Part shown: in pieces, positions 23,017 through 38,840 of the stretch
Layout: every line of letters begins with the position of its first letter
Numbering within the stretch: position 1 is the first letter of the stretch
Assembly (NCBI RefSeq): GCF_030145185.1
Contig: NZ_JAQYWB010000023.1
Coordinates: 1 to 64,000, forward strand
Source of the DNA: Desulfoluna sp.
GTDB lineage: Bacteria > Desulfobacterota > Desulfobacteria > Desulfobacterales > Desulfolunaceae
DNA length: 64,000 bases
Direction of reading: 5' to 3'
Notes under the pieces: generated by a model
Told to the model about the DNA's origin: nothing
Databases searched by the model: none
The model's input: the letters and a program-made list of their open reading frames with translations, nothing else
Made by a program: the position numbers and the translations under genes

Positions 23017-23109
23017 TGGATCATCTCTTCCTCATTGTGATAATATACGCGATTGTATGCAGCCGGTTCGCCGACAACTCACTAACCTTTCAGTACGACA
23101 GGCATATTC

Positions 23110-23667: not shown

Positions 23668-23687
23668 CCCGGAAATATCCGGGTTAG
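23664..23687. repeat. Dispersed repeat copy A (both ends fused)
   Basis: TTAGCCCGGA (23664-23673) and TATCCGGGTTAG (23676-23687) face each other with only two bases between, so the copy is a perfect small hairpin (CCCGGA-aata-TCCGGG). The TAG is the stop codon of the DUF3334 gene. The same core recurs at 38881, 39112, 45058, 53353 and 61059. Confidence 0.75.
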
Positions 23688-23703
23688 GGGGTGGCCCCTT
23701 TTT
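23684..23703 (+). terminator. Possible terminator of the DUF3334 gene
   Basis: A short GGGG-tgg-CCCC stem is followed by five Ts on the plus strand, immediately after repeat copy A. The stem is only four to five pairs, so it may act together with the repeat hairpin. Confidence 0.5.
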
Positions 23704-23718
23704 CTGCCCTCTCTCTTC

Positions 23719-26700
23719 TCAGGGCAGATCGATCAACAAGGCGTCCAATTCCCGTATGCAACCCTCCTCAGGCCGATCGAAGTAGACGCCCTTGCCGGAG
23801 CCATCCACACCCCGAAGAAAGACATACCAGGCTCCGGCCATATGGACTTCATAGTCATACGCCTCGCCCAATTTAAGGGCGAGGTGACGATTCAAGGCCA
23901 CGGTGTAGAGGAGATACTGAAGGCCGTAGTGATGTTCGCTCATGGCGTGAGCCAGGGCCTGTTTATGATAGTCCTCCGGGCTGTTTCCAAGGTGATTGGA
24001 CTTCCAGTCGATAATCCCAAAGCCTTTTCCCACCTGAAAAATCAAATCCACAAAGCCTTTGAGATACCCTTGAATCGGGGAAAAGCTGAGCCCTTCCATC
24101 CTCAGCTCGCCCCCTTCAAGCGGCCCATACCCCCAGCGATTCAAGACCTCTTTCAGGGCGCCGGGGGTGATGCGTTTCAAGGGAAAGGTAAACTCCATCT
24201 CGTGGAGACGCTCCCGCACGGGCACCTCCGCCAGGGTAAAGGGGGTCTCAAAGGCGTTCAGAGGCGTGTTCAGGACCTCTCTCACCATCCCGGAGATAGC
24301 TTCGGTCCAAAGTTCGGTATCGTACCCATGCCTAAGCAGCAGCTCACGGCAGGCAGAGGTCCTGACCGACTCTTCCGCGTCAAAGGGAAGGGTTTCAAAA
24401 AGCGTGTGCATAAAGGTGCCGGGGCCGGCCCCCTTGGGAAAGGCAAAAATACCTTCAGCCGGAACCTCCTCCTCTGGTTTTTTGTGGACCCAGGCGTCGT
24501 AATCGGCTTCATGGGACTCTCTACCCGAAGAAGCCAGGCCTGAAAAGCTAGTGACAATCCGCGGATCCGGTAGCCTGCCCTTGAACTGCCGCGCCGGGGC
24601 CAGTTCGGCCTGAGTCTCCTGAAAGGTCAAGGGGATCGATTCTTCATCCTGCTCGCAAAGTTGGATCGTCACCGCTCCGGTCGAGGCTGACTCCAATTCG
24701 TGCAGATCGGTGACCAGGTCATGTTCGTTCCGGGAGACGATGAGAGAGGCCGCCTCTTCGGCACTTCTGCTCTCCGGAGCATGAAGAAGCCGTGCCATGG
24801 CGCTCCGCTCAAAGCCCTTGACCCGTCCCCAGGGGATCACCATATGATGACAGGCACGGGTCAGGGCCACATACAGCAGGCGAAGTTCTTCGGCCAGGGC
24901 CTCTCCCGCGGCCAGGGCCCTGTGTTCCTCCAAGTCCTCTGAACCCACATCGTAGACCAGAGCGTCCTCCCCTTCGTGATAGAGAGCCCCCCCTTTGGGC
25001 TCCCGATATCCCATAAAGGGGAATGGCAAAAAGACCACCCCGTATTCCAGCCCCTTGCTCTTGTGAATGGTGACAATCTGCACCGCCGTCCGATCACTCT
25101 CTAAGTGAAGCTGATGCTCCTCCAGTCTCGGTGAGGCAGGATCCCGCATGCGGGACAGCCACCGGAGGAGTCCTTCCGGTGAGAGGCGGCGCGTCATGGT
25201 TTCCCGATGCAGAAGGGCGATGAGATGCTGCATGTTGGTGACCCGGCGCTCGCCATCTGTCAGGCCCATCAGACGTTCATAGGGCTCCTGCGCCCGTATG
25301 AAGCGGCGAATCATCCGCATAAAGCTCTCCTCTTTCCAGAGGGCATGCCACTCTGCAAAAAGCACACTCCAGTGTTCCAGCTGCAAGGGGGAGGTGTCCA
25401 GCGCGGCGATGGCCTCGGCATCCAGGCCGATCATGCGGGTGGCAAGGGCTGCCTTGACCAGAGAGAGGCGCCAGGGCCGCAGGCAGGCGGCAAGCAAAAG
25501 AGCCGTCTCTTCGGCCTCCTCGCTGTCAAAAATATTTCCTGAGCTGTAGAGAACGGCGTGAACCCCCAAGGTCGTCAGATGGTTTTTCACGGCCCTAGCC
25601 TGATCGTTGGTCCTGACGATCACCGCCACATCTTTTTCTGTAAAAGGTGCCGCTCCGATCAAAGCGCGGCCTTCCCGTCCCATGCGCAGCAGAGAGACCA
25701 GCTCGGCCCCGCAGAGGTCGATACAGAGGTTCTGGGCCACCTCTTTGGAGAGGGGCTTCTCCCCGGCCTCAAATCGCTGAATCAAAAGGGGGCTTATGGG
25801 CTCCGAATCGAGGGTCAGCGTCTCTGCATTGTCTCCCCCGGCACTTTTGACCGGAGCAAAGAGGATCCGGTCAAAAAGGAAGGGAGCATCACCGCGTGAA
25901 AAAAGGGTGTTGACAGCCTGGACCATGCCATTGGTGCTGCGGTAGTTCACATCCAGGGTATACCCTTTTTCCGCCTCACCGGCGGCCCTTAAATAGGCAA
26001 AAATATCGGCCCCGCGGAACCCGTAAATTGCCTGTTTGGGGTCTCCGATCATAAACAGGGTGGTCTCTTTAAAAAGGCGATCAAAAATCTCGTATTGTTC
26101 GGGGTCGGTGTCCTGGAACTCATCAATGAGAGCCGCATCGTAGTTTTGACTCACGCCCCGGGCGAGGGTGTCTCCCCCGTCGTCTCCAAGGGCTCGGGCC
26201 ACCCGGGAGAGCAGGTCATCGAACCCCATGATTCCGGCACTCTCTTTGTCCTTGGACAGAGTCTCATCCACATACCGGGCCAGGGCGATCAGATGAGCCA
26301 TGTGATTGCGCTCATAAATAATTTTCAAATCTTCAAGGTCTTCCAGAAGGGTATCCATGATCCCGAAGAGCGGGTTCTCTTCGACGGCCTTTCCCTTTTT
26401 GGTGGCGGCGCACAAGGTGGAGAGAGATAATTTTTCAAGATCTTTCATCTCCCCAAAGGGAACGCTGCCGGAAAAAAGGTCCCGGGCCGCCGCCTCAGCC
26501 TTTCTCTCCACCCCTTTGCGGTATTTGTTCCGATTAAGGGCCGGGTCCGTTGCGATGATGCGTAAGGCGTTCTCTTTTTCCTGGCCCCATATTCGCGATG
26601 CCCGCCCCAGGGATGTGAGACATTGCGCCTCGCACTCCGCGGCAGAGACCGGTTCCCCCTCAGGCAAAAAGGAGATCCGGGACAAGGGGGTGCTGAAGGA

Positions 26701-27264
26701 GAGAAACCTTAACAGACTCTCGGGCAGAATCTTTTGGTCCTTGAGCCAGGCCGCGTAGAGAGAGGTCGCTCCCTCTACCATCCTCCGATAATAATCCTGC
26801 ACTGCCCGCTGCTTCAAGTGACTGAGATCGGTGACCAGTTCCATATCCAGGGGCGAGCCGCTCTCAAAGGCATGGTCCGACAAAAGCCGCCGGCAAAAGC
26901 CATGAATGGTGAAGATGGCCGCTTCATCAAAGTTGCGAAGGGCCGTTCGAAGACGACGGGCCGCATCGTTGTGCGCGGCTCCATCGGGAAACAAAGAGGC
27001 ATAGAGAGAATCATCGTTTGGGGTGCCTTCGAGAAAATGGAGGGCTTCGCGCAGCCGTTCCCGAATGCGTTCGGCCAGCTCCTGGGTGGCGGCTTCCGTA
27101 AAGGTCACCACCAGGATGCGGTCCACAGACATCTTTTCCTCTACCACGAGACGCAGGTAGAGGGCCGCGATGGTATAGGTTTTTCCGGTACCAGCGCTTG
27201 CTTCGATGAGATTTCGCCCGGCAAGGGGAGTGGCGTCGAGACGCAGGGTCGCTAAGGTTTTCAT
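23719..27264 (-). CDS. recB: Exodeoxyribonuclease V subunit beta (RecB helicase-nuclease)
   Basis: The 1181-residue protein has Walker A EASAGTGKT (21-29), UvrD/Rep helicase motifs (AALIDEFQDTDPEQY, FMIGDPKQAIYGFRGAD, TIHKSKGLEYGVVF) and a C-terminal RecB-type nuclease domain with GFVDLIF...IIDWKSN, the D-x-K catalytic pair. It is the 3'-5' motor and the single nuclease of RecBCD, processing double-strand ends and degrading foreign DNA. Its ATG overlaps the recC stop (ATGA), so it is translationally coupled to recC. It is somewhat shorter in the N-terminal part than well-studied enterobacterial RecB. Confidence 0.95.
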   Translation of the reverse strand: MKTLATLRLDATPLAGRNLIEASAGTGKTYTIAALYLRLVVEEKMSVDRILVVTFTEAATQELAERIRERLREALHFLEGTPNDDSLYASLFPDGAAHNDAARRLRTALRNFDEAAIFTIHGFCRRLLSDHAFESGSPLDMELVTDLSHLKQRAVQDYYRRMVEGATSLYAAWLKDQKILPESLLRFLSFSTPLSRISFLPEGEPVSAAECEAQCLTSLGRASRIWGQEKENALRIIATDPALNRNKYRKGVERKAEAAARDLFSGSVPFGEMKDLEKLSLSTLCAATKKGKAVEENPLFGIMDTLLEDLEDLKIIYERNHMAHLIALARYVDETLSKDKESAGIMGFDDLLSRVARALGDDGGDTLARGVSQNYDAALIDEFQDTDPEQYEIFDRLFKETTLFMIGDPKQAIYGFRGADIFAYLRAAGEAEKGYTLDVNYRSTNGMVQAVNTLFSRGDAPFLFDRILFAPVKSAGGDNAETLTLDSEPISPLLIQRFEAGEKPLSKEVAQNLCIDLCGAELVSLLRMGREGRALIGAAPFTEKDVAVIVRTNDQARAVKNHLTTLGVHAVLYSSGNIFDSEEAEETALLLAACLRPWRLSLVKAALATRMIGLDAEAIAALDTSPLQLEHWSVLFAEWHALWKEESFMRMIRRFIRAQEPYERLMGLTDGERRVTNMQHLIALLHRETMTRRLSPEGLLRWLSRMRDPASPRLEEHQLHLESDRTAVQIVTIHKSKGLEYGVVFLPFPFMGYREPKGGALYHEGEDALVYDVGSEDLEEHRALAAGEALAEELRLLYVALTRACHHMVIPWGRVKGFERSAMARLLHAPESRSAEEAASLIVSRNEHDLVTDLHELESASTGAVTIQLCEQDEESIPLTFQETQAELAPARQFKGRLPDPRIVTSFSGLASSGRESHEADYDAWVHKKPEEEVPAEGIFAFPKGAGPGTFMHTLFETLPFDAEESVRTSACRELLLRHGYDTELWTEAISGMVREVLNTPLNAFETPFTLAEVPVRERLHEMEFTFPLKRITPGALKEVLNRWGYGPLEGGELRMEGLSFSPIQGYLKGFVDLIFQVGKGFGIIDWKSNHLGNSPEDYHKQALAHAMSEHHYGLQYLLYTVALNRHLALKLGEAYDYEVHMAGAWYVFLRGVDGSGKGVYFDRPEEGCIRELDALLIDLP

Positions 27265-30200
27265 GCTGTCAAGGCCTCCAGAATCGGTCGATAAAGAATC
27301 TCAGCACATCGCGCGAAGGAGGCGTCCGCCAAGGGCTCCCGGCCCCCCACGGCCATTTTTATCCAGGGATCATTGAGATCTGCCATGATGGAAAACGCAT
27401 TGCCGTAAAAAGCTGCACGTGCTTTTGCCATGGCTTTTCCTTCGTCACAGGTTTTCATAAGCTCTTGAACATAGGCCTCGGAGGCCATGGGAAACAGGGG
27501 CAAAAGGCCGCTCCCTCCCGCGACACAGAGACGGACCAGATCTTCCAGCACCGACCGGGGATTGGGAGGGACGACCATGGGGACAATCTGGGCACCACCG
27601 GTTTTCCTGTCCAACCCCACCACCACCGCCCGGGTCACCGGCATGCCGGCTGTGGCGGCGATCAGGAGACGCAGCCAGGCGGAAATCAAATCCTGCCCCC
27701 GAACCTTGCCGAAGCGCCCCGTCACAAGCACCTCACCAAAAAAGGGTCCCACCTCTCCGGCGAGGTCAACGCCGGAGATTTCTATCCACTGTCGTTCATA
27801 GAGGGGCTCCGTCCCTTGGGTCAAAGGGCCAAGGGCCTCGGCCACGGCCCGGGCGTCATGGGTGAGTTCCCTGAGCAGATGGACGCCCACCTCCCCGCGA
27901 GGCAAGAGCCCCATGGCCGACACCACATCCAGAGGGGACTCAAGGCTCTCTCCGGCGAGGGCGCTTTCAAAAAGAAGGGTCCCGGCCTGGAAGCGTTCCA
28001 ACCCTGTCAAAGTAAATGGTTCACAATTTTCCGGGGCGTCTTCTCCCCCCCTTAGTTCCATGCCCAGCTGCTCACGCAGAAAATACCGGCAGGGGTGTAT
28101 CAGAAAAGCCTCAAGGACCTCCAGAGAGATCTGAGCCGGCTGGAGAAATTCGCCCTCCACCTCTGCAAGGCTGGAAAAAGGCGGGGGAGCAACCGGCGGC
28201 TCCGTCATACGGACCGCCACACGGCGACTGGCCGCGTCAAAGGTAAAGAGGGAGGGATTTCCGGGCTGAAAATAGGCGCTGGAAAAGGGGTGCAAGGGAT
28301 GTTTTACTTTAATCTGATGAGACGCCCCTTCTGTGGTTGTGGCGTCCACATAATCCAAGAGTTCTGAGATCAGCACCGAGGGTTGAAGGGTGCCGTTATC
28401 CCGGATACTCTGCCCGGTGTAGCTGATCCAAAGTTTTTCCCGGACGGAGAGAAGGATCTCCAAAAACAGATAGCGGTCATCCTTTCGTCGGGAGCGATCC
28501 CCCCGTCTTGGCGATGCCGCGATGAGATCAAATCCGGGGGCCTTTTGCTGCCTCGGAAAGGTGCCGTGCCCCATGCCAAGGATGCCAATCACCCGAAAGG
28601 GGATGCTGCGCATGGGGAGCATGGCGCAAAAAGTGACGCCGCTGGTAATAAATCCCGAAACAGGATCCGGCTCGCCCAGGGCGGTCTTAAGGATAAAGCG
28701 CACCACGGGAAAAACAACGGCATCCTCATTTCCGGCTTCCTCGGCGGCATCGGCCATGCGGTAAAGGGCGTTTCGAATCCCCTGGAGTCCTTCGCCTGTC
28801 CCTTCATCATCGGTCAAAAAGGTGGTCAGAACCCCTTCAAAAAAATCAGTCCACGCCCTGGCGCTGCGAGGGCGCTCCAGATCTTTCACGTACCCTGTCA
28901 GGCAGGACATAAAATAAGCCAGGCGACCGAGCAGCATCCCGTGCTCCCCTTCCACCGGTCCGGCGGGAAGGATGCCGTCGTAGAGAGACGACTCTTCGTC
29001 CCCTGCGGCATAACCTGTAAACAGCCTGTCAAAGCCTGCCTTCCAGCTGTTGGCCTCAAAACAGGAGAAACCTTCCTCGCCGCGTTGCTCACCGTCTGCC
29101 CCCCAGCGTATGGATGTTTCCTGAATCCAATGGCTGACCCGCTCAAGATCCCCTTCAGCCATCCCAAAAGCACTTCGGATGCGATCATTTTCCAAAAGTT
29201 CAAGAATGCCCCCCGCTTCAAAGCGAAAACCCGTCAGATCAAGAAGAAGAAGCAGTGCCTCAACAGCACGATCCCCGCTTTTGTTGGCCTGGTCCGCAAT
29301 GGAAAAGGGAATCCGGATCGCCCCTTCCACGCGGCGGCTGAAGACCGCTTCGATGACCGGCGCGTAGGTATCGATGTCCGGGGCCATGACCAGGATATCC
29401 GATGGCCGGAGACCCGGGTCTTCGTCCATCATGGCCAGAAGTGAATCCCGCAGCACCTCGACTTCCCGGAGGGGGCTGTGGCAGCTGTGAACGGTAAAGG
29501 AGGTATCCGAGGCCTCCAGGGAGAAACGCTCACAGGCATCCCGGGTGCGGTCCCTTAAATGAAAGATATCGGCCTGAACCGAGCCGAGGAGGGTCTCTTC
29601 ATCCGGGTCGACAAACAGAGGGATCTCTTCCAGCCCACGTTCAGCCATCATGTCGAAGAACTCCCGGCCCTGGCCACCCATGGATGCCAGCAGAGGGTTC
29701 CCCTCTTCCATAAGAAGGGTGGCGTCCTCTTCCTCTTCAAGTCCCTGTTTCTGTTTGAGGCGTCGTTTTTCAGAATCGGAGAGAATATCTCCCCAAAACT
29801 GAGGACAGGGATTCAGCAGAAAAAGGTTCACCTGAGAAACCTCCGAAAGGGCAATAAAAAGCTCCATATGAAATTCAGGCAGAGAAGAGATACCGAAAAC
29901 GCAGATCCGTTCAGGGAATATCCCCTTATCATTCCGATGAGTTTCAATGCAAGCCTTCAAGTCTTTCATCAGGTGAACGCGATGACGAAAGCCAAGGGAG
30001 CCGAGGAGGTCACGGTAAAGAATCGCCTGAAAATCATCTCCCTCCCCTGCCTCCCAGGAATCAATCATGTCCGGTCGATACGTGAGGTACTGATCGAGGG
30101 TATCCGCCAGAAGTTCGGAGATCTGGTAACGTTTCAAGGGCTCATCCGTGTTGCCCAGGTAATGGGCCAGGGAAGAAAAAGCGGGTTGCGTCACCCACTC

Positions 30201-30506
30201 GGGCAGGCACCCCATGATCTTCCACGCGGCAGATTTGGCGTCAAATCGCCGCGTGTCAGCCAGGTCGGGGACAGCCAGCCCAAACATGTCCTGGAGGAAA
30301 GCATTGGGAAAACGCCATCGAACGTTGGCGCAGATTCCATTGTTCCGGCCGAGGGCCAGGGAGAGCCACCGGGCCATGCCCTGACTCTGAAGAACCACGA
30401 CATCGGGTTCCAGCGGGTTCCCCATGGGGGCTTCCAGTACTTTGGAAAGGGCCCTGGCCAGTATCTCCAGACGATTTCCTGTAAACAAATTCAACCCAGC
30501 GTCCAT
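27261..30506 (-). CDS. recC: Exodeoxyribonuclease V subunit gamma (RecC)
   Basis: The 1081-residue protein begins MDAGLNLFTGNRLEILA, a form of the RecC opening, and contains LQSQGMARWLSLAL, LFLLNPCPQFWGD and GMGHGTFPRQQ, all typical of RecC. RecC is an inactivated helicase-like scaffold that splits the strands and, in enteric bacteria, reads Chi. GGAG ten bases upstream supports the start. recC-recB form one unit, and recD is about 4 kb further along the strand. Whether a Chi-like site exists in this host cannot be judged from one window. Confidence 0.94.
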   Translation of the reverse strand: MDAGLNLFTGNRLEILARALSKVLEAPMGNPLEPDVVVLQSQGMARWLSLALGRNNGICANVRWRFPNAFLQDMFGLAVPDLADTRRFDAKSAAWKIMGCLPEWVTQPAFSSLAHYLGNTDEPLKRYQISELLADTLDQYLTYRPDMIDSWEAGEGDDFQAILYRDLLGSLGFRHRVHLMKDLKACIETHRNDKGIFPERICVFGISSLPEFHMELFIALSEVSQVNLFLLNPCPQFWGDILSDSEKRRLKQKQGLEEEEDATLLMEEGNPLLASMGGQGREFFDMMAERGLEEIPLFVDPDEETLLGSVQADIFHLRDRTRDACERFSLEASDTSFTVHSCHSPLREVEVLRDSLLAMMDEDPGLRPSDILVMAPDIDTYAPVIEAVFSRRVEGAIRIPFSIADQANKSGDRAVEALLLLLDLTGFRFEAGGILELLENDRIRSAFGMAEGDLERVSHWIQETSIRWGADGEQRGEEGFSCFEANSWKAGFDRLFTGYAAGDEESSLYDGILPAGPVEGEHGMLLGRLAYFMSCLTGYVKDLERPRSARAWTDFFEGVLTTFLTDDEGTGEGLQGIRNALYRMADAAEEAGNEDAVVFPVVRFILKTALGEPDPVSGFITSGVTFCAMLPMRSIPFRVIGILGMGHGTFPRQQKAPGFDLIAASPRRGDRSRRKDDRYLFLEILLSVREKLWISYTGQSIRDNGTLQPSVLISELLDYVDATTTEGASHQIKVKHPLHPFSSAYFQPGNPSLFTFDAASRRVAVRMTEPPVAPPPFSSLAEVEGEFLQPAQISLEVLEAFLIHPCRYFLREQLGMELRGGEDAPENCEPFTLTGLERFQAGTLLFESALAGESLESPLDVVSAMGLLPRGEVGVHLLRELTHDARAVAEALGPLTQGTEPLYERQWIEISGVDLAGEVGPFFGEVLVTGRFGKVRGQDLISAWLRLLIAATAGMPVTRAVVVGLDRKTGGAQIVPMVVPPNPRSVLEDLVRLCVAGGSGLLPLFPMASEAYVQELMKTCDEGKAMAKARAAFYGNAFSIMADLNDPWIKMAVGGREPLADASFARCAEILYRPILEALTA

Positions 30507-30685: not shown

Positions 30686-30714
30686 TTGACAATAAAGGCT
30701 ATATCCCCTAATTT
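30686..30714 (+). promoter_or_regulatory. Predicted sigma70-type promoter of the motor operon
   Basis: A perfect TTGACA (30686-30691) and TAATTT (30709-30714) are separated by 17 bases. It is the best promoter match I found in the window and points at the six-gene operon beginning at 30897. Confidence 0.6.
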
Positions 30715-30723
30715 GCATACCTG

Positions 30724-30779
30724 AGTTTACATTGTAAACTATATGAATCATATATTTCATTATCGGTACAAAGTGTACC
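30724..30779. promoter_or_regulatory. Three consecutive perfect palindromes, probable operators
   Basis: AGTTTACATTGTAAACT (30724-30740), TATATGAATCATATA (30740-30754) and GGTACAAAGTGTACC (30765-30779) are each perfectly symmetrical and lie just downstream of the predicted -10 element, where repressor operators often sit. Their sequences differ, so they may bind different regulators or fold as hairpins in the leader. Confidence 0.55.
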
Positions 30780-30896
30780 TCACGCATTGGTCAAAGACAT
30801 CCTGGGCAAAGACGCCCCGCACCGATGCTTATCCTCTGATTTATTTAAATATCCAGACTATCTAATAACACAGATAATCCGAGATCCCGAGGCCGT

Positions 30897-31529
30897 ATGG
30901 AATTCATCATTCACATCTTCAAGCTCTACCCCAACCTGGTCGGTGATCTTGTTCAGGGGTTGGTTTACATTGGCAGCACTATTTTATTTTTTAACGCCAT
31001 CTGGCTTATTATCCAGGCCTATCGCCATGCCCGGCTCGTCAAAAAAAAGACACTCGCGGCCGTGGCCTGCGAGCCGCCCTGTCTTGATGACCTGCTGATG
31101 ACCGTGGCCGCCAAAACCCTCCGGGCCGCTCATGATGAACACAAAGGAAGCCCTTATCCTGTCTCTTTTCTGGTGGATGCCACCCACCAGATGATGGAAA
31201 ACATCTTTCACACGCGTTATATCAACAAAATCACCATGATCACCAACCTGCTTCCCCCCATGGGTTTTATCGGGACCATTTTTGGGATGATCATGATTTT
31301 CCTGGCCAAAGGCGATCCAAACAGTGACCTGAACACCACCGGCCTCGGCATCGCGCTCTTTACCACGCTCATCGCCCTCACCTGCTTTGTGATCCTTGAG
31401 GTATTCAAAAAAAGCCTGGTTAACTTGTCCACCTCGCGTATTGAGCGGGCACTGAGCTTTCATCCTTATATTTGTGCTGCAACGGACCCGGATGCGTCAG
31501 CCAACTCGGTGGAAACGTCAACCCTTTAA
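30897..31529 (+). CDS. MotA/TolQ/ExbB-family proton channel protein
   Basis: The 210-residue protein has three predicted membrane segments: about 17-42, 113-137 and 150-172. The second and third carry NLLPPMGFIGTIFGMIMIF and GLGIALFTTLIALTCFVI, the family signature in which small and threonine residues line the ion path. A cytosolic loop separates segments 1 and 2. Such proteins form pentamers around an ExbD/TolR dimer and convert proton motive force into mechanical work in the periplasm. It opens the operon and is followed after nine to fifteen bases by an ExbD-like gene. Whether it belongs to ExbB, TolQ or a new subgroup is undecided. Confidence 0.85.
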   Translation: MEFIIHIFKLYPNLVGDLVQGLVYIGSTILFFNAIWLIIQAYRHARLVKKKTLAAVACEPPCLDDLLMTVAAKTLRAAHDEHKGSPYPVSFLVDATHQMMENIFHTRYINKITMITNLLPPMGFIGTIFGMIMIFLAKGDPNSDLNTTGLGIALFTTLIALTCFVILEVFKKSLVNLSTSRIERALSFHPYICAATDPDASANSVETSTL

Positions 31530-31544
31530 ACCCAGGCGATGACC

Positions 31545-32006
31545 ATGAGATACGAAGATTCTAAAATCTGGCTTTTCTCCTTTGCCGATCTGGCCTTTCT
31601 GTTGTTGATTGCCTTTACCCAGGCCTCCACCATCGGAAAAAACCCGGTGCACATCGGCGAAATGACGATCCCAAGGGTTGTGGATACCCAAAGCATCTCC
31701 ACGCTGGACCAGGCCCGAATCTCTTTCCAGATTCGCGTTCTCAAGCCCACCATCCCGGAGACCACTCCGTTTCAGTGGGTCACGGTGGTTGACGGAAAGG
31801 TACAACCCGAAGAACACACCCTGAATGCTCAAAGCCTGCAAGACCGCCTGACAGACATGAAGCATGAAGGCAAAAATCGTCCCATGCTGGTTCCCGACCA
31901 ATTTTCATTGAGTAAAGACACTCTGATGGCCATGGCCCTCATCGAAAAGATTTACGACGACGATGAGAAGCGAGTCACCGTCCAAAAGATTTCAGGACCG
32001 CTTTAA
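31545..32006 (+). CDS. ExbD/TolR-like protein
   Basis: The 153-residue protein (ATG at 31545 with AGG eight bases upstream; an in-frame ATG at 31539 is possible) has one N-terminal membrane helix, IWLFSFADLAFLLLIAFTQA, with an aspartate at the position of the essential proton-carrying Asp of ExbD/TolR. A periplasmic domain follows, ending in a VPDQFSLSKDTLMAMALIEKIYDDD-like strand-helix unit comparable with the ExbD fold. It should pair with the preceding channel protein. The periplasmic domain is not close to classical ExbD, with an unusual insertion-like middle (about 40-95). Confidence 0.8.
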   Translation: MRYEDSKIWLFSFADLAFLLLIAFTQASTIGKNPVHIGEMTIPRVVDTQSISTLDQARISFQIRVLKPTIPETTPFQWVTVVDGKVQPEEHTLNAQSLQDRLTDMKHEGKNRPMLVPDQFSLSKDTLMAMALIEKIYDDDEKRVTVQKISGPL

Positions 32007-32100
32007 ATCACTTTTTTTGTCTGAGACAACGCGTCTCCGGAGGGCATGGATATGAGAAGCCCGCAGCATAAAGCCCGGAGACAAGGGGGAATAAATTTTT

Positions 32101-33444
32101 ATGCGCTCGATGCCCATGCAATATTTCGGATACGGTTCGGCGCGTATTGTCATGCCCCGAGCCGTCGCACGCCATGCGCGCCGTGAATGGATCGTCAGTC
32201 CCTCTTTTATGATTCTTGTTATTTCCCTGACTTTTTTCACCCTGTATAAAATCATTTTTTCAGACGCGCTGAATCTTCCCCCCACCCGAACCATTATCCT
32301 GCTTCCCCAGGCACCCATGCTCCCCAAAGTCACCGTGGAGAAAAAATTGACCTTTCTCACGGTGGTCAAAGAGGCCGCAAAGAAAAGTGCCGCGCCCAGA
32401 AAAAAAGAACTGACGCGGATTCTCGAATCACCCAAACCCCTTCCGAAGCGGGTGTTGCCTCCGACAACCGTCATCAAACGAACGCCTCCGGTCCGTCTGC
32501 CTCCCCCGAAGAAGAAGGCACTGACTCTGACCCCCAAGCCCCTGGTGCCTCCCCTGCGCCTGCAGAAACAGTCTCTGCCCGAGAAAAGGCGACTTTCTCC
32601 GGTGAAACCCCAACCCCGGCTGCCTGCGACACACCCTGCCCAAAAACCTGCACCCTCGCGCTCCCAAACCCCGGCGATCAGGGAACAGAGGCTCCGAAAG
32701 GTGTCAAGCACACCACCCCTTTCAATGCCAGAGACGTTGAACGTCGCCCAGCCCTCCCCTCGTCCCGTGGCTAAGAGTTCTGAACGGATGCGGAGCCGGA
32801 AACGGATCCCCCAGCCCCAATCGGTGACCCCATCCGCCCTTGTTCCGCGGACAAAGCCCCACAGGGACCCGACGCCATCGGAGGCCCCCTCTCAAAAAAA
32901 ATTTCGCCCCATGGCCCTTGCCGGTGTCTCGGCTAAGGTTTTAGCCCGGCAACCTGAGCTTGCCTCTCAGGCAACGAGGGTATCGGCTATAAAACGGTCG
33001 GGGCCGGCACCGGTTATCACCCAGTTTTCGGCCCCATCGGCTCCTCCTGCTGCGGCCTCCTTTGAAAAAGAGACCTCGCCGCCGCAGACCGCCAAACGTG
33101 CCCGATCTTTCTCCTCCGGGGCGCTGCCCTCACATCTGCCCGCCGTCCCTGTGGAGGCGTCGGCCCTTGAAACGCCGCAGGATATTCACACATGGGTGAC
33201 CATCCATGGAAGCACCCTGAAGCATTCCCTGCGTGTTACGAGCCTCAAAGAGGAGATCTATCGCAAAATCAGGTACATGAAGCCAGAAAAAAGCCCTTAT
33301 CGCTATCGCATCCAGGGGTATACCTGCACGGTGGTTATCCAAAGCGGTACGAATCCCATAGCCACGCTTACGTTTCAACCCAACGACGCCACGTTTGAGG
33401 TGGTCTCCACCCTTGAGCGAATCCTGCCACGGAGGACAATGTAA
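32101..33444 (+). CDS. Proline-rich TonB/TolA-like energy transducer
   Basis: The 447-residue protein has a short basic cytosolic tail, one membrane segment (about 31-54), a very long Pro/Lys/Arg-rich linker (about 60-345, with KPLPKRVLPPTTVIKRTPP and similar runs) and a small C-terminal domain (about 360-447). That domain ends TCTVVIQSGTNPIATLTFQP followed by a terminal helix, the strand-turn-strand-helix order of TonB/TolA C-termini. It probably spans the periplasm and passes motion from the two preceding proteins to an outer partner. The TonB YP motif is absent and no TonB-dependent receptor is encoded nearby. The linker is one of the longest and most basic of this type. Confidence 0.7.
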   Translation: MRSMPMQYFGYGSARIVMPRAVARHARREWIVSPSFMILVISLTFFTLYKIIFSDALNLPPTRTIILLPQAPMLPKVTVEKKLTFLTVVKEAAKKSAAPRKKELTRILESPKPLPKRVLPPTTVIKRTPPVRLPPPKKKALTLTPKPLVPPLRLQKQSLPEKRRLSPVKPQPRLPATHPAQKPAPSRSQTPAIREQRLRKVSSTPPLSMPETLNVAQPSPRPVAKSSERMRSRKRIPQPQSVTPSALVPRTKPHRDPTPSEAPSQKKFRPMALAGVSAKVLARQPELASQATRVSAIKRSGPAPVITQFSAPSAPPAAASFEKETSPPQTAKRARSFSSGALPSHLPAVPVEASALETPQDIHTWVTIHGSTLKHSLRVTSLKEEIYRKIRYMKPEKSPYRYRIQGYTCTVVIQSGTNPIATLTFQPNDATFEVVSTLERILPRRTM

Positions 33445-33447
33445 TCC

Positions 33448-35529
33448 ATGATCACTGCAAACCAAACGACCCCACCCCGCCCCTTGGGTAGATGCCATCT
33501 CTGGATTTTTACCTTCCTGATGACACTCCTGGGGGGCTTGCTGATGTCTCCCCTCCCTCTTTTCGCGGTTTCTGAGATGACAGAGTTCCAGATGGAGATG
33601 GAGATGGAGGATGAGCGGAGCTCTTCCGAACCCAAAATTTCTGTGTCCAATAAGCAGAGCCCCATGCTTTGGATTTCTGCCGTAGGCAAACTCTACATGA
33701 GAGACCAGATGACATCCCGGCAGCGGGCCTCGTTTTTTAAATTGCTGGACTCCCACCTCGGTATTGAGAAGGACGGCCATCTCAACATCACCACCGCACG
33801 CCAGACGGAAGCGCAACTGACCCAGTACAGTCAGCTCAAGGTGAAACCCTTTTCAAACATCTATTTCGACGAAAAGATCAATCTTACCGGTTACAATGGT
33901 CTCTACCTTGAAACCTGCGTGCTTAACCGTACGGATGAAGCCGCTCGTTTTATTCGCTATTTTGAAAACGGGTACTATCCCAACCGGTCGCTCTTCGTCA
34001 AAGAGGAGCTCTACTATAAGTGCCTTTACTACTATCTCTATTTGACCCAGGAGCACCTTATTCAGGCCATCAACACCACGGTGGCCCAGCTGTCATCCAG
34101 TCCGGAAACCCCTCCGCCTTTTAAAAAGGAAGACATCAAAGGTCTTGAAACCATGGTGATGGTGTGTACGGAATTGGACAACCTCAGGCGTCGCGGGCTC
34201 TCCTCCAAGACCTCACCCTGGGAACGCATCTTCACCCCGGATGAGAGCGCGTGGCTTGACGCCACCCTTGCTTACTTTATGGACATAGAGACCCACATCG
34301 CCCTGAACAGTTACGACTGGTTCAAGCGTCATCTCCCTCTGTCCATCAGCAGTCTCATCATCGCCCATTCCCTGCGGCAAACGTGGACAGAGCAGGCTGT
34401 ATCGCACCGAACCGTCCTCCCTCTCATGCTCTTTATCAATCAGGGGACCAAGCAGTTCAGCGTGGAGAAACTTTTCAAAGAAACCCTCGATATGTTGAAG
34501 ATGGACAATCGGGAAGTGGACCTGGTGGTTCTGTCGGCCATGAAGAGCTGGCTTCTCAAGCAGATAGAACAAGGAATCAAAGTCGAAGACCGGACCACGT
34601 ATAAAAAAATTCTCGATGAACTCAACGTCTGCCCCACAGGATGGATTTTCTATAACCTCTACTCCTGTCGTGAGCCTCTGGAGGCCTTAAAGAAACATGC
34701 CGATGGGTGGGAACGCCTCGACAGGGAGGAACGAGAACGCCTCTTCAACACAAGCGTTCAGCCCCTCTATAACGAAGCCAGGGCCAAAATCGACATCGTC
34801 TTTACCGATCTGGAAAAAATTTTCGGAGGGGAAGAAATTTACGGAGGAGAATACAAGGCCACCAGCATCAACCATATTTTTCACCGGTACCGGGGAGAGA
34901 TTGATTACATCTTTGAATTCCTCCAGGCCGGGCTCTTCGAAGCCACCCTTTCGGATGCGAGGCTTCCCCTGGCCAACGCCACGCGAAGCTGCCTGCACGA
35001 CTTTACCGCAGCCTTTGTTAAAGCACCGAATCTTCGCGTCAACCACGTAAACCTGCTGGGGGCCTACACCCTCCTGTTTCGTGAGTTGTCGGCCCAGGGC
35101 AAGGTGAGCCTTATCATCCGCCATGAACGGGAATTGGCAGAATTTATTCGATCCGAAAAGTATACCCTGGGCTCAGTCCTTGTGCATAAAGAAGACAACC
35201 GATATGAAATTTACCGCATCATCGCCGACACCTATCTTGCGACCCCGAGACTTCGCACCCAAGCCTTGAAAGTCGCCGCCCAAAGTTTTGACCTGGCGCG
35301 CTCCTATTACCTTGAGGCCGCGCGACGAGAAGGGTTCATCTCCGGCACCCTGCCGGGTGCCCTCCCCTCCGACGCAACAGAGAGAGATGATTACGAACGG
35401 CAATACGAATACTATCAATCGATCGCACAAAAACTCGGCAAAAAAGTCCTCCTCCTGCTCCCCCCAGAGGATGTGGATCTTTACAACCGGATGCAGGATT
35501 CAAGGAATCCGGAGGGGTATCTTTTATAA
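33448..35529 (+). CDS. Large exported protein of unknown function, motor operon protein 1
   Basis: I do not recognise this 693-residue protein. An N-terminal hydrophobic stretch (about 17-40, ending PLPLFA) looks like a signal peptide or anchor, followed by an acidic, Met-rich patch (FQMEMEMEDERSSSE). The rest is predicted mostly helical and rich in Tyr, Leu and Glu, with segments such as YYKCLYYYLYLTQEHL, and no catalytic motif. It starts three bases after the TonB-like gene and its stop overlaps the next start (TAATG), so it is part of the same coupled operon. A periplasmic or outer-membrane-facing structural role is inferred. Confidence 0.7.
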   Translation: MITANQTTPPRPLGRCHLWIFTFLMTLLGGLLMSPLPLFAVSEMTEFQMEMEMEDERSSSEPKISVSNKQSPMLWISAVGKLYMRDQMTSRQRASFFKLLDSHLGIEKDGHLNITTARQTEAQLTQYSQLKVKPFSNIYFDEKINLTGYNGLYLETCVLNRTDEAARFIRYFENGYYPNRSLFVKEELYYKCLYYYLYLTQEHLIQAINTTVAQLSSSPETPPPFKKEDIKGLETMVMVCTELDNLRRRGLSSKTSPWERIFTPDESAWLDATLAYFMDIETHIALNSYDWFKRHLPLSISSLIIAHSLRQTWTEQAVSHRTVLPLMLFINQGTKQFSVEKLFKETLDMLKMDNREVDLVVLSAMKSWLLKQIEQGIKVEDRTTYKKILDELNVCPTGWIFYNLYSCREPLEALKKHADGWERLDREERERLFNTSVQPLYNEARAKIDIVFTDLEKIFGGEEIYGGEYKATSINHIFHRYRGEIDYIFEFLQAGLFEATLSDARLPLANATRSCLHDFTAAFVKAPNLRVNHVNLLGAYTLLFRELSAQGKVSLIIRHERELAEFIRSEKYTLGSVLVHKEDNRYEIYRIIADTYLATPRLRTQALKVAAQSFDLARSYYLEAARREGFISGTLPGALPSDATERDDYERQYEYYQSIAQKLGKKVLLLLPPEDVDLYNRMQDSRNPEGYLL

Positions 35530-37229
35530 TGAAGAAGCAACGGATCTACCTGACCCTTATGGTTTTTTTTCTATGGAGCAGCCCTGCAAGCGCGGATTTT
35601 ATGCAGGAATTCAAGACCCGCGGGCGAAGCCTCTATCTGCTCCATGCGGTCCCCCAGCAACAGCCTCCGGCCCACACAGGGATCACGGCCTTAAGCGATC
35701 GTGACATGGCCCGGGTGAATACCCTGGCTGTCGTCCCCGAGGAGGGGCCCTTTCTCCCGGTGGATGACATCGAAACCATGGTAAAACGCATCGACCGGCT
35801 CACCGAAGAGTTTGAAATTTCCAAGGACGGGGAACGTCTGCAGCGCCTTCGGTTTGACATCTCTTACGAATATTTTCTTCTTTACCTCCACTTCCAGAAG
35901 ATCAAATATGGATTTGGATTGGAGAAGAGACCTCAGGAAGAAAATATTCCCGTCACCGATGCAGAGCTCAGGCAATACCTGATGCTCAGCCGCCACTACA
36001 TCTCACCTTTTCTGGAACTGACTCAAATCCAGAGCGGTAACGGGCCTTCCCTTCGCATGATGGACGATGTCAGCTTCAGGATTCGGGGCAAAGCCGACAC
36101 CTACTTAAACGTCCACTTCCTGGCCATGATGATCGAAACGGAGCTTCTGGCTGGACACTGGATCGACGGGGACAACCCTCAGCCCATCCATCACACCTGT
36201 GAAGCAAAAACCTGGCACTGGCTGGAGACCCTCTGGAAACGATACCACCGAACAAGCGGGGAGAGCCTGTACACCCCTTCGTCAGCGCAACTCTTCTCCC
36301 TGTACGAGCTCTACCTCAGGTATCACTTTCTCGGGAGGAGCCTCCGCCATGATGAAAAAACCGACCCCCTGACTCACACCCGGACCCGCACCCTCCTGAG
36401 TCGACTGAACGACTTGAGCACATCGGGAGGCATCGTCAACGGCACCCCCTATGCCCAGTACGTCAAGGAGGTCAACAAAGATTCCGGCAACACCAACTTT
36501 GTGGTGAGCCTCTACCTCGCCCGAAGAGGATTTTCCGTGCTGAGAAACAACACCCTGCCCGCCACGAGGGCTCAGCTCTTCACGCTCTATCAGCGATACT
36601 ATGACCGGGCAGCCCAGGAGATTCGCTACAACATCTCCTACCGAAAAAAAATATACAACGAACTGATTCTTCTGGGGGTGGAGACAGGCAACCTTCGGCT
36701 CATGGAGGATGTCCTCTACCAATACGGCCTGATGGGGCTCCGCATTCCCAGCCCAGAGGATGGAGGCCCGTTCATCGGGGACTCCTCGCGATTTACCATG
36801 GCCTACCTCCTGGCCAATATTCTGGATGCAAAACGGCTCTCCGGGCTCACCTCCGATTCAGGAAGATACGCCGAAATGGAGGGCAACCTGGTGGAGTCCC
36901 TCACCTCCTCGTCCAACTCTTACTGGCGATATGCCTCGGTTTTTCACAGGTGCCTGGCGGAGTATTACGCAAGGGCCCATGACAACCGCAGTGAAGCCAT
37001 GGCCATTTATCACTCCAGAAAAGCCTTCCTTACCCTTTGCAAAAAACTTTCACTCAACGGTAAGGGGGGGGATTTTACGGCTTTCCAAAAAATGCCGGAC
37101 TCCAAGAGTTTTCTTGGCCTCTTTCTTTACTATCAGAAAAAATACCCCACGAGTCCCGATGCATCGGTCCCTCGGGAATATCGTGCGGAACGGATCATTC
37201 AGTTGAAATTACAGCAAAACAGGAGTTAG
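35529..37229 (+). CDS. Large exported protein of unknown function, motor operon protein 2
   Basis: The 566-residue protein has a clear type I signal peptide (MKKQRIYLTLMVFFLWSSPASA). The mature chain looks alpha-helical, with Tyr-rich helix pairs such as SYEYFLLYLHFQKIKYGFG and FTLYQRYYDRAAQEIRYNIS and possible helical-repeat character, but no clear TPR consensus. I recognise no family. Translation is coupled to the preceding gene by overlap, and the next gene starts one base after its stop. Its composition is similar to protein 1, which may mean distant paralogy. Confidence 0.7.
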   Translation: MKKQRIYLTLMVFFLWSSPASADFMQEFKTRGRSLYLLHAVPQQQPPAHTGITALSDRDMARVNTLAVVPEEGPFLPVDDIETMVKRIDRLTEEFEISKDGERLQRLRFDISYEYFLLYLHFQKIKYGFGLEKRPQEENIPVTDAELRQYLMLSRHYISPFLELTQIQSGNGPSLRMMDDVSFRIRGKADTYLNVHFLAMMIETELLAGHWIDGDNPQPIHHTCEAKTWHWLETLWKRYHRTSGESLYTPSSAQLFSLYELYLRYHFLGRSLRHDEKTDPLTHTRTRTLLSRLNDLSTSGGIVNGTPYAQYVKEVNKDSGNTNFVVSLYLARRGFSVLRNNTLPATRAQLFTLYQRYYDRAAQEIRYNISYRKKIYNELILLGVETGNLRLMEDVLYQYGLMGLRIPSPEDGGPFIGDSSRFTMAYLLANILDAKRLSGLTSDSGRYAEMEGNLVESLTSSSNSYWRYASVFHRCLAEYYARAHDNRSEAMAIYHSRKAFLTLCKKLSLNGKGGDFTAFQKMPDSKSFLGLFLYYQKKYPTSPDASVPREYRAERIIQLKLQQNRS

Positions 37230-37230
37230 A

Positions 37231-38757
37231 ATGAATAGCCAAACTGAAGAGACATCGCCCCTCCTCCTGGATCTCCCGAAAGGCCGGAGATCCCGTGACC
37301 TGATCCCTCCCTCATCAGGGGTTCTCCTGCGTGCCTTCGCAAACCGTTTGACGGCATTCATACGCGCCACGTCTTTGGCAGGTGCCCTCGTGCTGGTCAC
37401 CTTCTGCCTGCCGCCCGTCACCTTCTCTGCCGAAGCCACCACCATGGAAGAACTGAAAGCCAATTACCTCACCAGTATCTACGAGGACAGCCGCATTTTT
37501 CTGGAAGGTATTGAGCTGTTCGTCAACCGGGACTACCCGAAATTCTGGTCTGACATCGAAACCGGCCGACCCGTCCCGAAAAGGATGATCCAGCGCTATA
37601 TCCGGGAGCTGAGGTATTTTGAGGGCCAACTCGATGCCCTCTATGAAGAGTTTATCAGCTATGCGGACACCACGGCGAACAAGTCAAACCGCGGGCAAAC
37701 CAAGGTCCGGGATCTGGAGGCCAAAATTTATCATATTCTGGCCTATGCCTACATGCGCACCGGCGATTTTGCCATGAGTCACGCCTTGACCAATAACGAT
37801 GCCATCGGCTCCAAATCCTTTACCATTCCCCTGATGGACATTGAGGGAAAACAACAGACCTTTGCCCTGACCCTTGAGTTGAAGAGGCTGCAACGCCTCA
37901 TCAGTGCAAACCTCAACATTGTCGAACTCCGGATGAAATACTTTTTCCCGACGGATCTTGACAACATCAACGCCTACCTGAAAGTCAGTGATTTCGATCA
38001 GGGAAACCCCTTCAATCTGACCTTCCTGAGCTACTACGACAAAGCATTCCTCGAGTTGGGGGAGACCCGAAACAGCGTGATTCATTTCAGTGAAATCACC
38101 CAATTCTTCAACCGTATCAAATACAACGACGCCTTCAGCCAGGGCACGCGTGACACCAAGGGCTGGGAACTCATTTATCGTCTCCCCATCATCAAGGCCG
38201 AGTATGGCATGGATTTAATGGACACTTCTATTTTAGGATCCGTCTCCTCAGACAACCACGTGCTCGGACTGGAACGCCTCTGCCGATATAAAGGATTTAC
38301 ACGGACCGATTTTCGGACCTTGAAACTGGAAGAGAAGCAGAACATTGCCAACAGCTCCACCCTGGAAAAAGAACTCTACATCGCACGCATTGCCCCCACG
38401 CACAGCGAGACCTCCAAGGAAGACGTCTTGATGACGTATTACGGCAATGTCCCCAGTGACGGCAAACTGCTCCAGGGAATCCCCATTCGCTATGGCACCT
38501 ACAGCCTGTTCGAAGGGTCAGAATTCCTCGGCCTCATTGAACTTGTCCCCTGCTACAAGGGCCAACCCTGCACCAAACTAAATACGGACAAAGCCGTCAC
38601 AGAGGTCAAGGTATACAATCACGAGCTCAGTTTTTATGAGGACACCCTCGATTTTATCCGAATGAACACGCGCATGTATGGAAAAACAACCCACATGACC
38701 CGTGGAGATGACTCAGAAATTCATATTGGACGAGGCTGCGCCTCCGGTAAAAAATAG
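37231..38757 (+). CDS. Large exported protein of unknown function, motor operon protein 3
   Basis: The 508-residue protein has a long charged N-terminal tail (about 1-45) before a hydrophobic segment ending VTFSAEA (about 46-70), so it is either anchored in the inner membrane or uses a late signal peptide. The mature part starts with helices (MEELKANYLTSIYEDSRIFL), has a central mixed region, and ends with a Cys-containing beta-like domain (LVPCYKGQPC; GRGCASGKK at the C terminus). No family is recognised. AGGAG five bases upstream supports the start. It is the last gene before a strong terminator, so the operon ends here. Confidence 0.7.
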   Translation: MNSQTEETSPLLLDLPKGRRSRDLIPPSSGVLLRAFANRLTAFIRATSLAGALVLVTFCLPPVTFSAEATTMEELKANYLTSIYEDSRIFLEGIELFVNRDYPKFWSDIETGRPVPKRMIQRYIRELRYFEGQLDALYEEFISYADTTANKSNRGQTKVRDLEAKIYHILAYAYMRTGDFAMSHALTNNDAIGSKSFTIPLMDIEGKQQTFALTLELKRLQRLISANLNIVELRMKYFFPTDLDNINAYLKVSDFDQGNPFNLTFLSYYDKAFLELGETRNSVIHFSEITQFFNRIKYNDAFSQGTRDTKGWELIYRLPIIKAEYGMDLMDTSILGSVSSDNHVLGLERLCRYKGFTRTDFRTLKLEEKQNIANSSTLEKELYIARIAPTHSETSKEDVLMTYYGNVPSDGKLLQGIPIRYGTYSLFEGSEFLGLIELVPCYKGQPCTKLNTDKAVTEVKVYNHELSFYEDTLDFIRMNTRMYGKTTHMTRGDDSEIHIGRGCASGKK

Positions 38758-38797
38758 CCAGATACGTCATCCAAAGACCTGTCCCTTACGACAAATA

Positions 38798-38840
38798 AAA
38801 ACGGGTTTCAAGGCAGTGCCTTGAAACCCGTTTTGTTTTC
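38798..38840 (+). terminator. Terminator of the six-gene motor operon
   Basis: An 18-base perfect inverted repeat (38798-38815 with 38817-38834, centre ACGGGTTTCAAGGCA) is followed by GTTTTC on the plus strand. It sits 40 bases after the stop of the last operon gene and is the strongest terminator-like hairpin in this half of the window. Confidence 0.9.

What the first reader, a model, noticed from the sequence alone, without database searches (positions are those of the whole stretch)
30686..38840. Self-contained six-gene operon coupling a TolQ/TolR-type motor to three unknown exported proteins
Seen: a near-consensus promoter, six tightly spaced genes (gaps of 3 bases, a TAATG overlap and 1 base at the end) and a strong terminator. 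Known: MotA/TolQ/ExbB and ExbD/TolR proteins turn proton flow into force, and TonB/TolA proteins carry it across the periplasm. Inference: the last three proteins (693, 566 and 508 residues, exported, helical, without recognised domains) are the dedicated partners or load. There is no tolB, pal, TonB receptor or flagellar gene beside it, so it is neither a normal Tol-Pal nor a normal TonB locus. It could be an undescribed envelope machine for transport, motility or surface organisation.
Basis: partly seen in the sequence, partly recalled or inferred. Interest (0 to 1): 0.85.

Follow-up and report, generated by a model that had tools for sequence, protein, structure and literature searches.

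The report
Unnamed proton-powered envelope machine operon
Six neighbouring genes in a marine sulphate-reducing bacterium probably build an undescribed machine that uses proton flow to pull on something in the cell envelope, and the same six genes stay together in related bacteria.

Summary
Six co-directional genes lie at 30897-38757, with a conserved promoter-like site and a strong terminator. In the 12 genomes found to carry them, 11 have all six in one order; in the twelfth the contig ends before gene F. These span three families of the order, and the recBC/dnaE flanks were seen only in the genus. A is a MotA/TolQ/ExbB protein; B is ExbD/TolR-like with the membrane aspartate. C has the layout of TonB/TolA, but no detectable TonB/TolA domain and no SHLS motif; it carries its own N-terminal signature. 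D, E and F are exported and of no convincing family. D is modelled as a TPR-like solenoid, F as half helical, half beta. The A-B-C core recurs in nine further Desulfobacterota loci with other partners (a lipoprotein-like protein and D'). The window's genome has a separate, complete Tol-Pal. Best reading: an undescribed proton-driven trans-envelope force machine, working like Tol, Ton or the Agl-Glt core but failing membership tests for each. Load and cellular role are unknown. New variant of a known kind.

The parts
30686..30714 (+). promoter-like site: -35 TTGACA (30686-30691), 17-base spacer, -10-like TAATTT (30709-30714)
   Evidence: TTGACA-17-TAAT/TATT upstream of A in window, L032, L033, L034, L035, L037 and L038; not in L036, L039, L041, L042; -10 only 3 of 6
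30725..30739 (.). perfect palindrome GTTTACATTGTAAAC just after the -10, operator-like
   Evidence: only exact site in the 5.8 Mb genome (one 1-mismatch site elsewhere); GTTTACA half kept at the same place in L032, L033, L034, L035
30897..31529 (+). gene A: MotA/TolQ/ExbB-type membrane protein, 210 aa, three hydrophobic segments
   Evidence: PF01618 E 1.2e-7, 32 bits vs cut-off 22.9; segments; Thr127 and Thr157 invariant also against four TolQ/ExbB rows; 18 system A proteins on one side of a 100/100 branch against 7 other rows
31539..32006 (+). gene B: ExbD/TolR-like protein, 155 aa, one membrane helix with invariant Asp17
   Evidence: PF02472 E 5.3e-5, 23.7 bits, just under the curated 25.4; Asp17 invariant also against four TolR/ExbD rows
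32101..33444 (+). gene C: transducer-like protein, 447 aa: N-terminal signature (YGxGxxxIxMPR), one hydrophobic segment (35-53), Pro/Lys-rich linker, about 90-residue C-terminal domain
   Evidence: N-terminal signature shared with the C' proteins, hhalign 95.7%; no TonB/TolA domain found by sequence
33448..35529 (+). gene D: exported 693-aa protein, TPR-like alpha-solenoid model
   Evidence: hydrophobic signal-like N terminus in 11 of 11 loci after start correction in two; AF2 mean pLDDT 76.4, pTM 0.51; TPR domains rank highest, Z 12.6
35529..37229 (+). gene E: exported 566-aa protein, no family
   Evidence: not modelled
37231..38757 (+). gene F: exported 508-aa protein, helical N half and beta-rich C half
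   Evidence: AF2 mean pLDDT 67.6, pTM 0.61; helical half only matched
38798..38834 (.). terminator-like stem, 17 pairs, listed for both strands

Best explanation
The six genes encode one proton-driven trans-envelope force machine. Inferred working: A (pentamer) and B (dimer, Asp17) form a 5:2-type ion motor in the inner membrane. C is docked to the motor by its membrane helix and its conserved cytoplasmic N-terminal signature, and reaches through the periplasm with its Pro/Lys-rich linker. Its small C-terminal domain grips a periplasmic scaffold made of the exported proteins D, E and F, which carry the force to an outer-membrane or surface load that is not encoded in the operon. Shown: gene content, order and co-conservation, motor residues, export-type N termini, and an A-B-C core shared with a second partner set. 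Inferred: stoichiometry, proton use, C-motor and C-D/E/F contacts, and the load. The most likely role is moving or holding an outer-membrane or surface complex, in the manner of the Myxococcus Agl-Glt core (about 0.35), ahead of outer-membrane constriction or stability (0.2) and energised transport (0.15); the rest is open.
For: MotA_ExbB domain in A and ExbD-like B with invariant Thr and Asp. Same six genes in the same order in 11 of 12 carriers from three families, with several 4-base overlaps in L041 and L042; the twelfth contig ends before F. recC beside it in the five other same-genus loci, and no recB, recC or dnaE match in the six stretches fetched outside the genus. Pairwise distances of the six proteins correlate at 0.89-0.99 over 11 loci. 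D, E and F have export-type N termini in every aligned locus. The A-B-C core recurs with other exported partners in 9 loci, and the C N-terminal signature is shared. D is TPR-like. The 18 system A proteins placed in a tree are one side of a 100/100 branch against 7 references. Separate complete Tol-Pal in the genome.
Against: No physical or genetic evidence links D, E and F to the motor. B scores just under Pfam's cut-off. Weak matches of A point to MotA/PomA-type proteins rather than TolQ, and 9 of 16 B members touch MotB_plug weakly, so 'TolQ/TolR-type' is loose. C lacks the SHLS motor-binding motif of TonB/TolA in 21 of 21 proteins, so it may dock differently or not at all. No outer-membrane protein or lipoprotein is recognised in the operon itself. 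The known range is narrow. Linkage and correlated divergence are also what shared vertical descent would give: DnaE identities fall in a broadly similar order.
Confidence: 0.7

Rival explanations
1. It is a strongly diverged form of the Agl-Glt core complex (aglRQS with gltD, gltE, gltG, gltC), which occurs in some bacteria with no known function, and would therefore be a member of that family.
For: Same logic: TolQ-like, TolR-like, a bitopic proline-rich transducer and three exported TPR-type proteins; the published core is also clustered and scattered over distant bacteria including Geobacter (PMC3169522, section 6 and passages). D is TPR-like.
Against: Only one TolR-like gene found per locus, not two. 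C has no FHA and no TonB_C match, both listed for GltG. The NCBIfam GltE model gives 10 weak matches in this genome, all under cut-off and none on the contig of the operon. D and F match no NCBIfam model at E up to 1, and E none at 0.001.
Confidence: 0.15
2. It is a second, Tol-like system for outer-membrane constriction or stability: C acts as TolA, and D, E and F stand in for TolB, Pal and CpoB.
For: Motor plus bitopic transducer plus exported partners; the sister loci carry a lipoprotein-like gene upstream of A' in 8 of 9, recalling Pal.
Against: No TolQ or TolR equivalog match over cut-off, no TolB propeller and no OmpA/Pal domain found; a complete canonical Tol-Pal is present in the same genome.
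Confidence: 0.2
3. It is an energised transporter or secretion system (Ton- or type-IX-like): the motor opens or drives an outer-membrane channel encoded elsewhere, with D, E and F as periplasmic carriers.
For: ExbB/ExbD-type motor; the operator-like palindrome next to the promoter suggests regulated expression.
Against: No TonB receptor or barrel domain in the six proteins or in the eight flanking proteins scanned; other loci in the genome already look like ExbBD-TonB (by sequence reading). C shows no TonB_C match.
Confidence: 0.15
4. The six genes are only neighbours: A, B and C form a motor unit and D, E and F are unrelated exported proteins.
For: D and E show no profile match to the D' partners of the sister loci, so the partners look exchangeable.
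Against: All 12 carriers of this version of B also have D and E next to it, 11 of 12 also F, in one order across three families, with overlapping genes in several.
Confidence: 0.05

Closest known systems
Agl-Glt core complex (AglRQS + GltD, GltE, GltG, GltC) of Myxococcus and others
   Same: TolQ/TolR-type motor, a bitopic proline-rich transducer, and exported TPR-type partner proteins; clustered in several distant bacteria, unknown function in most of them (PMC3169522: section 6 and passages read)
   Different: One TolR-like protein instead of two; C shows no FHA or TonB_C domain; partner sizes differ (693/566/508 against 1191/471/673); no match of the GltE model on the operon's contig
Tol-Pal (TolQ-TolR-TolA-TolB-Pal-CpoB)
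   Same: Motor, and bitopic transducer with an extended middle and small C-terminal domain; periplasmic partners
   Different: No SHLS motif, no TolA/TonB domain found by sequence, no TolB, no Pal; a true Tol-Pal is present elsewhere in the genome
vWA force transducers with a TPR gene (PMC12204202, section 8 read)
   Same: tolQ-like and tolR-like genes beside a TonB-shaped transducer with an unrelated C-terminal domain and a TPR gene; function unknown
   Different: C has a domain of about 90 residues without vWA match and lacks the SHLS motif; one TolR-like gene, not a pair; three large partners
ExbB-ExbD-TonB systems
   Same: Motor type and the proline-rich bitopic transducer layout
   Different: No TonB_C match, no receptor gene seen beside it; ExbB-type paralogues of A in the genome are remote
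Zorya (ZorA-ZorB)
   Same: MotA-type motor protein
   Different: Six proteins give no Zorya match in PADLOC, whereas a ZorA-like protein elsewhere in the genome does; D, E and F are exported

Membership tests
5:2 ion-motor superfamily (MotAB/TolQR/ExbBD) | MotA/TolQ/ExbB domain in the A subunit | tested here: met
   PF01618, 32 bits against cut-off 22.9
5:2 ion-motor superfamily (MotAB/TolQR/ExbBD) | single-helix B subunit with a membrane aspartate | tested here: met
   Asp17 invariant in all 12 rows, 8 of the system and 4 TolR/ExbD; one hydrophobic segment in B
5:2 ion-motor superfamily (MotAB/TolQR/ExbBD) | ExbD/TolR domain over the curated cut-off | tested here: inconclusive
   23.7 bits against 25.4; 10 of 16 members match PF02472 at E up to 1, best 8.3e-6
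5:2 ion-motor superfamily (MotAB/TolQR/ExbBD) | five A and two B subunits, ion-driven | not testable with these tools
   -
Tol-Pal | TolQ equivalog | tested here: not met
   TIGR02796 E 0.038, 13.7 bits against cut-off 221; 0 of 11 A members match a TolQ model at E up to 0.001, 3 match PomA and 1 MotP weakly
Tol-Pal | tolB and pal beside the motor genes | tested here: not met
   no such domain in the six proteins or in the eight flanking proteins scanned
Tol-Pal / Ton | SHLS (SxHxLxS) motor-binding motif in the transducer | tested here: not met
   0 of 21 C and C' proteins; no His inside the strongest 19-residue hydrophobic window of any, though a few have one just past it, such as L032-L034 and L036
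Tol-Pal / Ton | TolA/TonB C-terminal domain | tested here: inconclusive
   no TonB/TolA sequence match in Pfam or PDB with whole protein or C-terminal domain; its fold was not modelled
Agl-Glt core complex | two TolR-like subunits (AglQ, AglS) | tested here: not met
   one B match per locus in the 12 loci examined; defining feature from PMC3169522 table 1
Agl-Glt core complex | GltG-type transducer with FHA and TonB_C domains | tested here: not met
   C: no FHA or TonB_C match at E up to 1
Agl-Glt core complex | GltE | tested here: not met
   NF033758: 10 sub-cut-off matches in the genome, none on contig C65
Agl-Glt core complex | homology of D, E, F with GltC and GltD | not tested
vWA force transducers | vWA domain at the C terminus of the transducer | tested here: not met
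   no vWA match in Pfam; the domain is about 90 residues
Zorya | ZorA/ZorB with ZorC/D or E | tested here: not met
   PADLOC: no Zorya match for any of the six at E up to 0.1
TPR proteins (gene D) | TPR repeats | tested here: inconclusive
   no TPR match in Pfam; model arrangement like TPR domains, Z 12.6, rmsd 3.8 over 193 residues, which the tool's note rates as possibly only a common arrangement

The most novel reading that the evidence does not exclude
A separate family of trans-envelope force machines in Desulfobacterota, with its own motor lineage and a transducer unrelated to TonB/TolA that docks through a cytoplasmic N-terminal signature. Its core is modular: the same A-B-C unit drives two unrelated sets of exported proteins (D-E-F, or lipoprotein plus D').
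Probability: 0.45. Interest if true: 0.75.

Novelty: new variant of a known kind. Interest (0 to 1): 0.6.

Why it matters
Few kinds of proton-driven envelope machine are understood (Tol, Ton, flagellar stators, gliding motors, type IX, Zorya; general knowledge). A conserved six-gene cassette with a new type of transducer, and a sister version with exchanged partners, would show how one motor core is coupled to different loads. It gives a compact and testable set of genes in sulphate reducers such as Desulfoluna.

Tried and rejected
Considered and rejected: Tol-Pal, Ton, vWA transducers, Zorya (see membership tests). The idea that C ends in a TolA-like domain (suggested by eye from a cysteine-containing strand) found no support in Pfam or PDB sequences, where the best matches were unrelated and weak (for example NRD1_2 at E 0.0095 and CdsD_C at 0.012, one of 12 members each); its fold was not modelled. 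Homology between D and E, D and F, E and F, D or E and D', and F and the sister lipoprotein: no convincing hhalign match (the lowest E, 0.0054 for D and F over 21 columns, has probability 6.7%). The C-terminal domains of C and C' are not convincingly alike. Pfam BofC_C for D just passes its cut-off (21.1 bits against 21.0, 30 of 693 residues); I take it as chance because it covers one short stretch of a helical model.

Led nowhere: Foldseek for D and F gave no PDB match at E 0.001. VIA-align for F covered mainly the helical half (residues 65-266), so the beta half is hardly tested. No fold was predicted for A, B, C or E (two jobs only). The -35/-10 scan did not list the promoter. Paper searches that showed nothing on this operon; they cover only open-licence PMC papers. 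The species-wide pattern scan used two peptide patterns and missed at least one carrier that the genome search had (G076), so it is not exhaustive.

Rows dropped: G594 (E 3.8e-4, 45 profile positions inside a 784-residue frame) was not counted as a carrier. L040 was left out of the alignments of A, D and F (A was cut because I fetched 6000 of 7608 bases; the D frame is broken there; F is beyond the contig end). The tree holds 18 of the 21 system A proteins and 7 reference rows, three of which have long branches. L012 and the other ExbB-type loci were not family-scanned.
Full report
1. What is there. Six ORFs on the + strand, A to F, lie at 30897-38757. Gaps are 9, 94, 3, -1 and 1 bases. A promoter-like TTGACA-17-TAATTT lies at 30686-30714. 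Its -35 is perfect and its -10 matches 3 of 6, so 'near-consensus' is too strong, and the scan tool did not list it. Yet TTGACA-17-TAAT/TATT recurs upstream of A in 7 of the 11 loci examined. A perfect palindrome, GTTTACATTGTAAAC, sits at 30725-30739. It is the only exact match in the 5.8 Mb genome, with one 1-mismatch site elsewhere; within the window 0.04 matches are expected by chance at up to 2 mismatches. Related half-sites keep their place in four of the five other same-genus loci. A 17-pair terminator-like stem closes the operon, though the number of terminator-like hits in the region is no higher than in shuffles (13 against 11.6).

2. Proteins. A matches MotA_ExbB (1.2e-7) and B matches ExbD weakly, just under Pfam's cut-off. 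C, E and F have no convincing match; D just passes the cut-off of BofC_C (21.1 against 21.0 bits, 30 residues), which I take as chance. In NCBIfam no model is reached over its cut-off by the six: A has weak matches, best to flagellar PomA (E 0.0011), E has two at 0.0094 and 0.059, and B, C, D and F have none at E up to 1. Of 11 A proteins, 3 match PomA and 1 MotP at E up to 0.001, none TolQ, and the weak PDB sequence matches of A are MotA and PomA. PADLOC gives only a weak CorA match for A. The residues expected for an ion motor are there: Gly126, Thr127 and Thr157 in A are invariant also against E. coli TolQ and three TolQ/ExbB-type rows of the same genome, and Asp17 in B against four TolR/ExbD rows. 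That such threonines and the aspartate are the working residues of known motors comes from PMC12204202 and PMC9389320 (aspartate). C has one hydrophobic segment (35-53) and 14% proline, a Pro/Lys-rich middle and an end domain of about 90 residues. D, E and F have hydrophobic, signal-like N termini in every row of their alignments by a simple hydrophobicity scan, not a trained predictor; for two D proteins the start I first called was wrong, and an upstream ATG restores the signal.

3. Conservation of the cassette. D was found in 9 of 146 relatives, E in 11 of 389 genomes of the class, and this version of B in 12 of 242 genomes of the order; these counts include the window's own genome. In all, 12 genomes of three families (f1, f34, f70) carry it. 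In 11 of 12 all six genes are present in the order A-B-C-D-E-F; in the twelfth (L040) A to E are present and the contig ends before F. In another family, four of five junctions in L042 and three in L041 are 4-base overlaps. recC lies beside A in the five other same-genus loci, and no recB, recC or dnaE match was found in the six stretches fetched outside the genus. Named carriers are Desulfoluna spongiiphila, D. limicola, D. butyratoxydans and seven MAGs titled Desulfobacterales, Desulfobacteraceae, Desulforapulum, Desulfococcus or, once, only Proteobacteria; they are the 10 loci of a two-pattern scan over 84,980 species, which is not exhaustive, since it missed G076. The profile of D in 395 genomes of the phylum found only the window's own, so the known spread is narrow. 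Pairwise distances of the six proteins correlate at 0.89-0.99 over 11 loci; DnaE identities fall in a broadly similar order, G004 apart, so this shows joint inheritance, not contact.

4. A second form of the machine. The B profile also found six more distant loci in the order and, when widened, three elsewhere in the phylum (a fourth weak match was dropped). All nine have A', B', a C-like protein and, next to it, a large exported-type protein D' of mostly 660-860 residues (one ORF of 996 probably starts too early, and one is cut by its contig end); L077, L086 and L087 have two. In 8 of 9 a small protein with a lipoprotein-like start lies upstream of A', and the ninth contig begins there (the lipoprotein start judged by eye). 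No significant D, E or F match is found in these loci, and D' is absent from the window's genome; in 192 class genomes D' occurs in 3, all known carriers of A'B'C'. D and E do not match D' by profile comparison. C and C' share a 23-residue N-terminal signature (hhalign 95.7%, score 73.7; best of 30 column-shuffled controls 18.2; reversed control score 35.2, probability 16%). By strict pattern it is in 16 of 21 C proteins; by eye its [IVL]x[ML]P core is in 19 of 21. The A proteins of both forms (18 of 21 used) lie on one side of a branch with 100/100 support against six paralogues of the window's genome and E. coli TolQ (a small reference set, three rows with long branches).

5. Structure. D is modelled as an all-helical solenoid (mean pLDDT 76.4, pTM 0.51). 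Foldseek finds no PDB match at E 0.001; VIA-align ranks TPR-type domains highest (Z 12.6, rmsd 3.8, 193 residues), which the tool's own note treats as possibly just a common arrangement. F is modelled at mean pLDDT 67.6, pTM 0.61, with a helical N half and a beta-rich C half; mainly the helical half was matched, to generic helical bundles. So 'three helical proteins' should read 'one TPR-like, one half helical and half beta, one not modelled'.

6. What it is not. The genome has a complete Tol-Pal elsewhere: tolQ, tolR, tolB, pal and cpoB (ybgF) over their NCBIfam cut-offs, and between them a TolA whose TonB C-terminal domain is over its cut-off (its full-length TolA model is under). C has no SxHxLxS motif in 21 of 21 proteins and no TolA/TonB domain by sequence; the fold of its end domain remains open. 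Against the Agl-Glt core: one TolR-like protein, not two; no FHA or TonB_C match in C; no GltE model match on the operon's contig. Direct comparison with GltC and GltD could not be made. It therefore works like these systems in anatomy, but is not filed as a member of any.

7. How it most likely works. A and B make a proton-driven motor; C carries its motion through the periplasm; D, E and F form the scaffold that passes it to an outer-membrane or surface load. The motor assignment is well supported; the contacts and the load are inference. The exchange of partners between the two forms on one core is the strongest hint that the exported proteins are what the motor acts on. I put the general mechanism at 0.7 and any one cellular role below 0.4.

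8. Literature. PMC12204202 (outline, section 8 and passages read) describes TonB-shaped transducers with unrelated C-terminal domains beside motor and TPR genes, and says that diverse motor-driven systems remain to be discovered; its main text holds no word beginning Desulf. PMC12505986 (passages) groups non-flagellar relatives, some of unknown function, and holds no word beginning Desulfo. PMC3169522 (section 6 and passages) defines the Agl-Glt core. PMC9389320 (passages) covers the 5:2 motors. Searches showed no paper on this operon; of the other papers only listings were seen.

Noticed in passing
window 30725-30739: Perfect 15-base palindrome right after the promoter, unique as an exact match in the genome; a dedicated regulator is possible.
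   Followed up: partly
window 21193-30506: RecD-, RecB- and RecC-like genes run away from the operon on the minus strand; recB/recC matches beside it were seen only within the genus.
   Followed up: partly
G000:C39 about 91090-93250 (L020): A long ZorA-like protein (PADLOC E 1.2e-24) elsewhere in the genome: a possible Zorya-type defence locus.
   Followed up: no
G000:C71 about 19150 (L017): Another MotA/ExbB-type protein (224 residues, no NCBIfam match at E 0.001) with a small neighbouring protein; very long branch in the tree, role unclear.
   Followed up: no
L077 6727-15256: Sister locus with two D' genes and two lipoprotein-like genes around one A'-B'-C' core, as if duplicated.
   Followed up: partly
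gene F C-terminal part, window about 38551-38757: Nearly invariant cysteines (Cys441, Cys447) and a C-terminal Gly-Cys (502-503) in F proteins, of unknown meaning.
   Followed up: no
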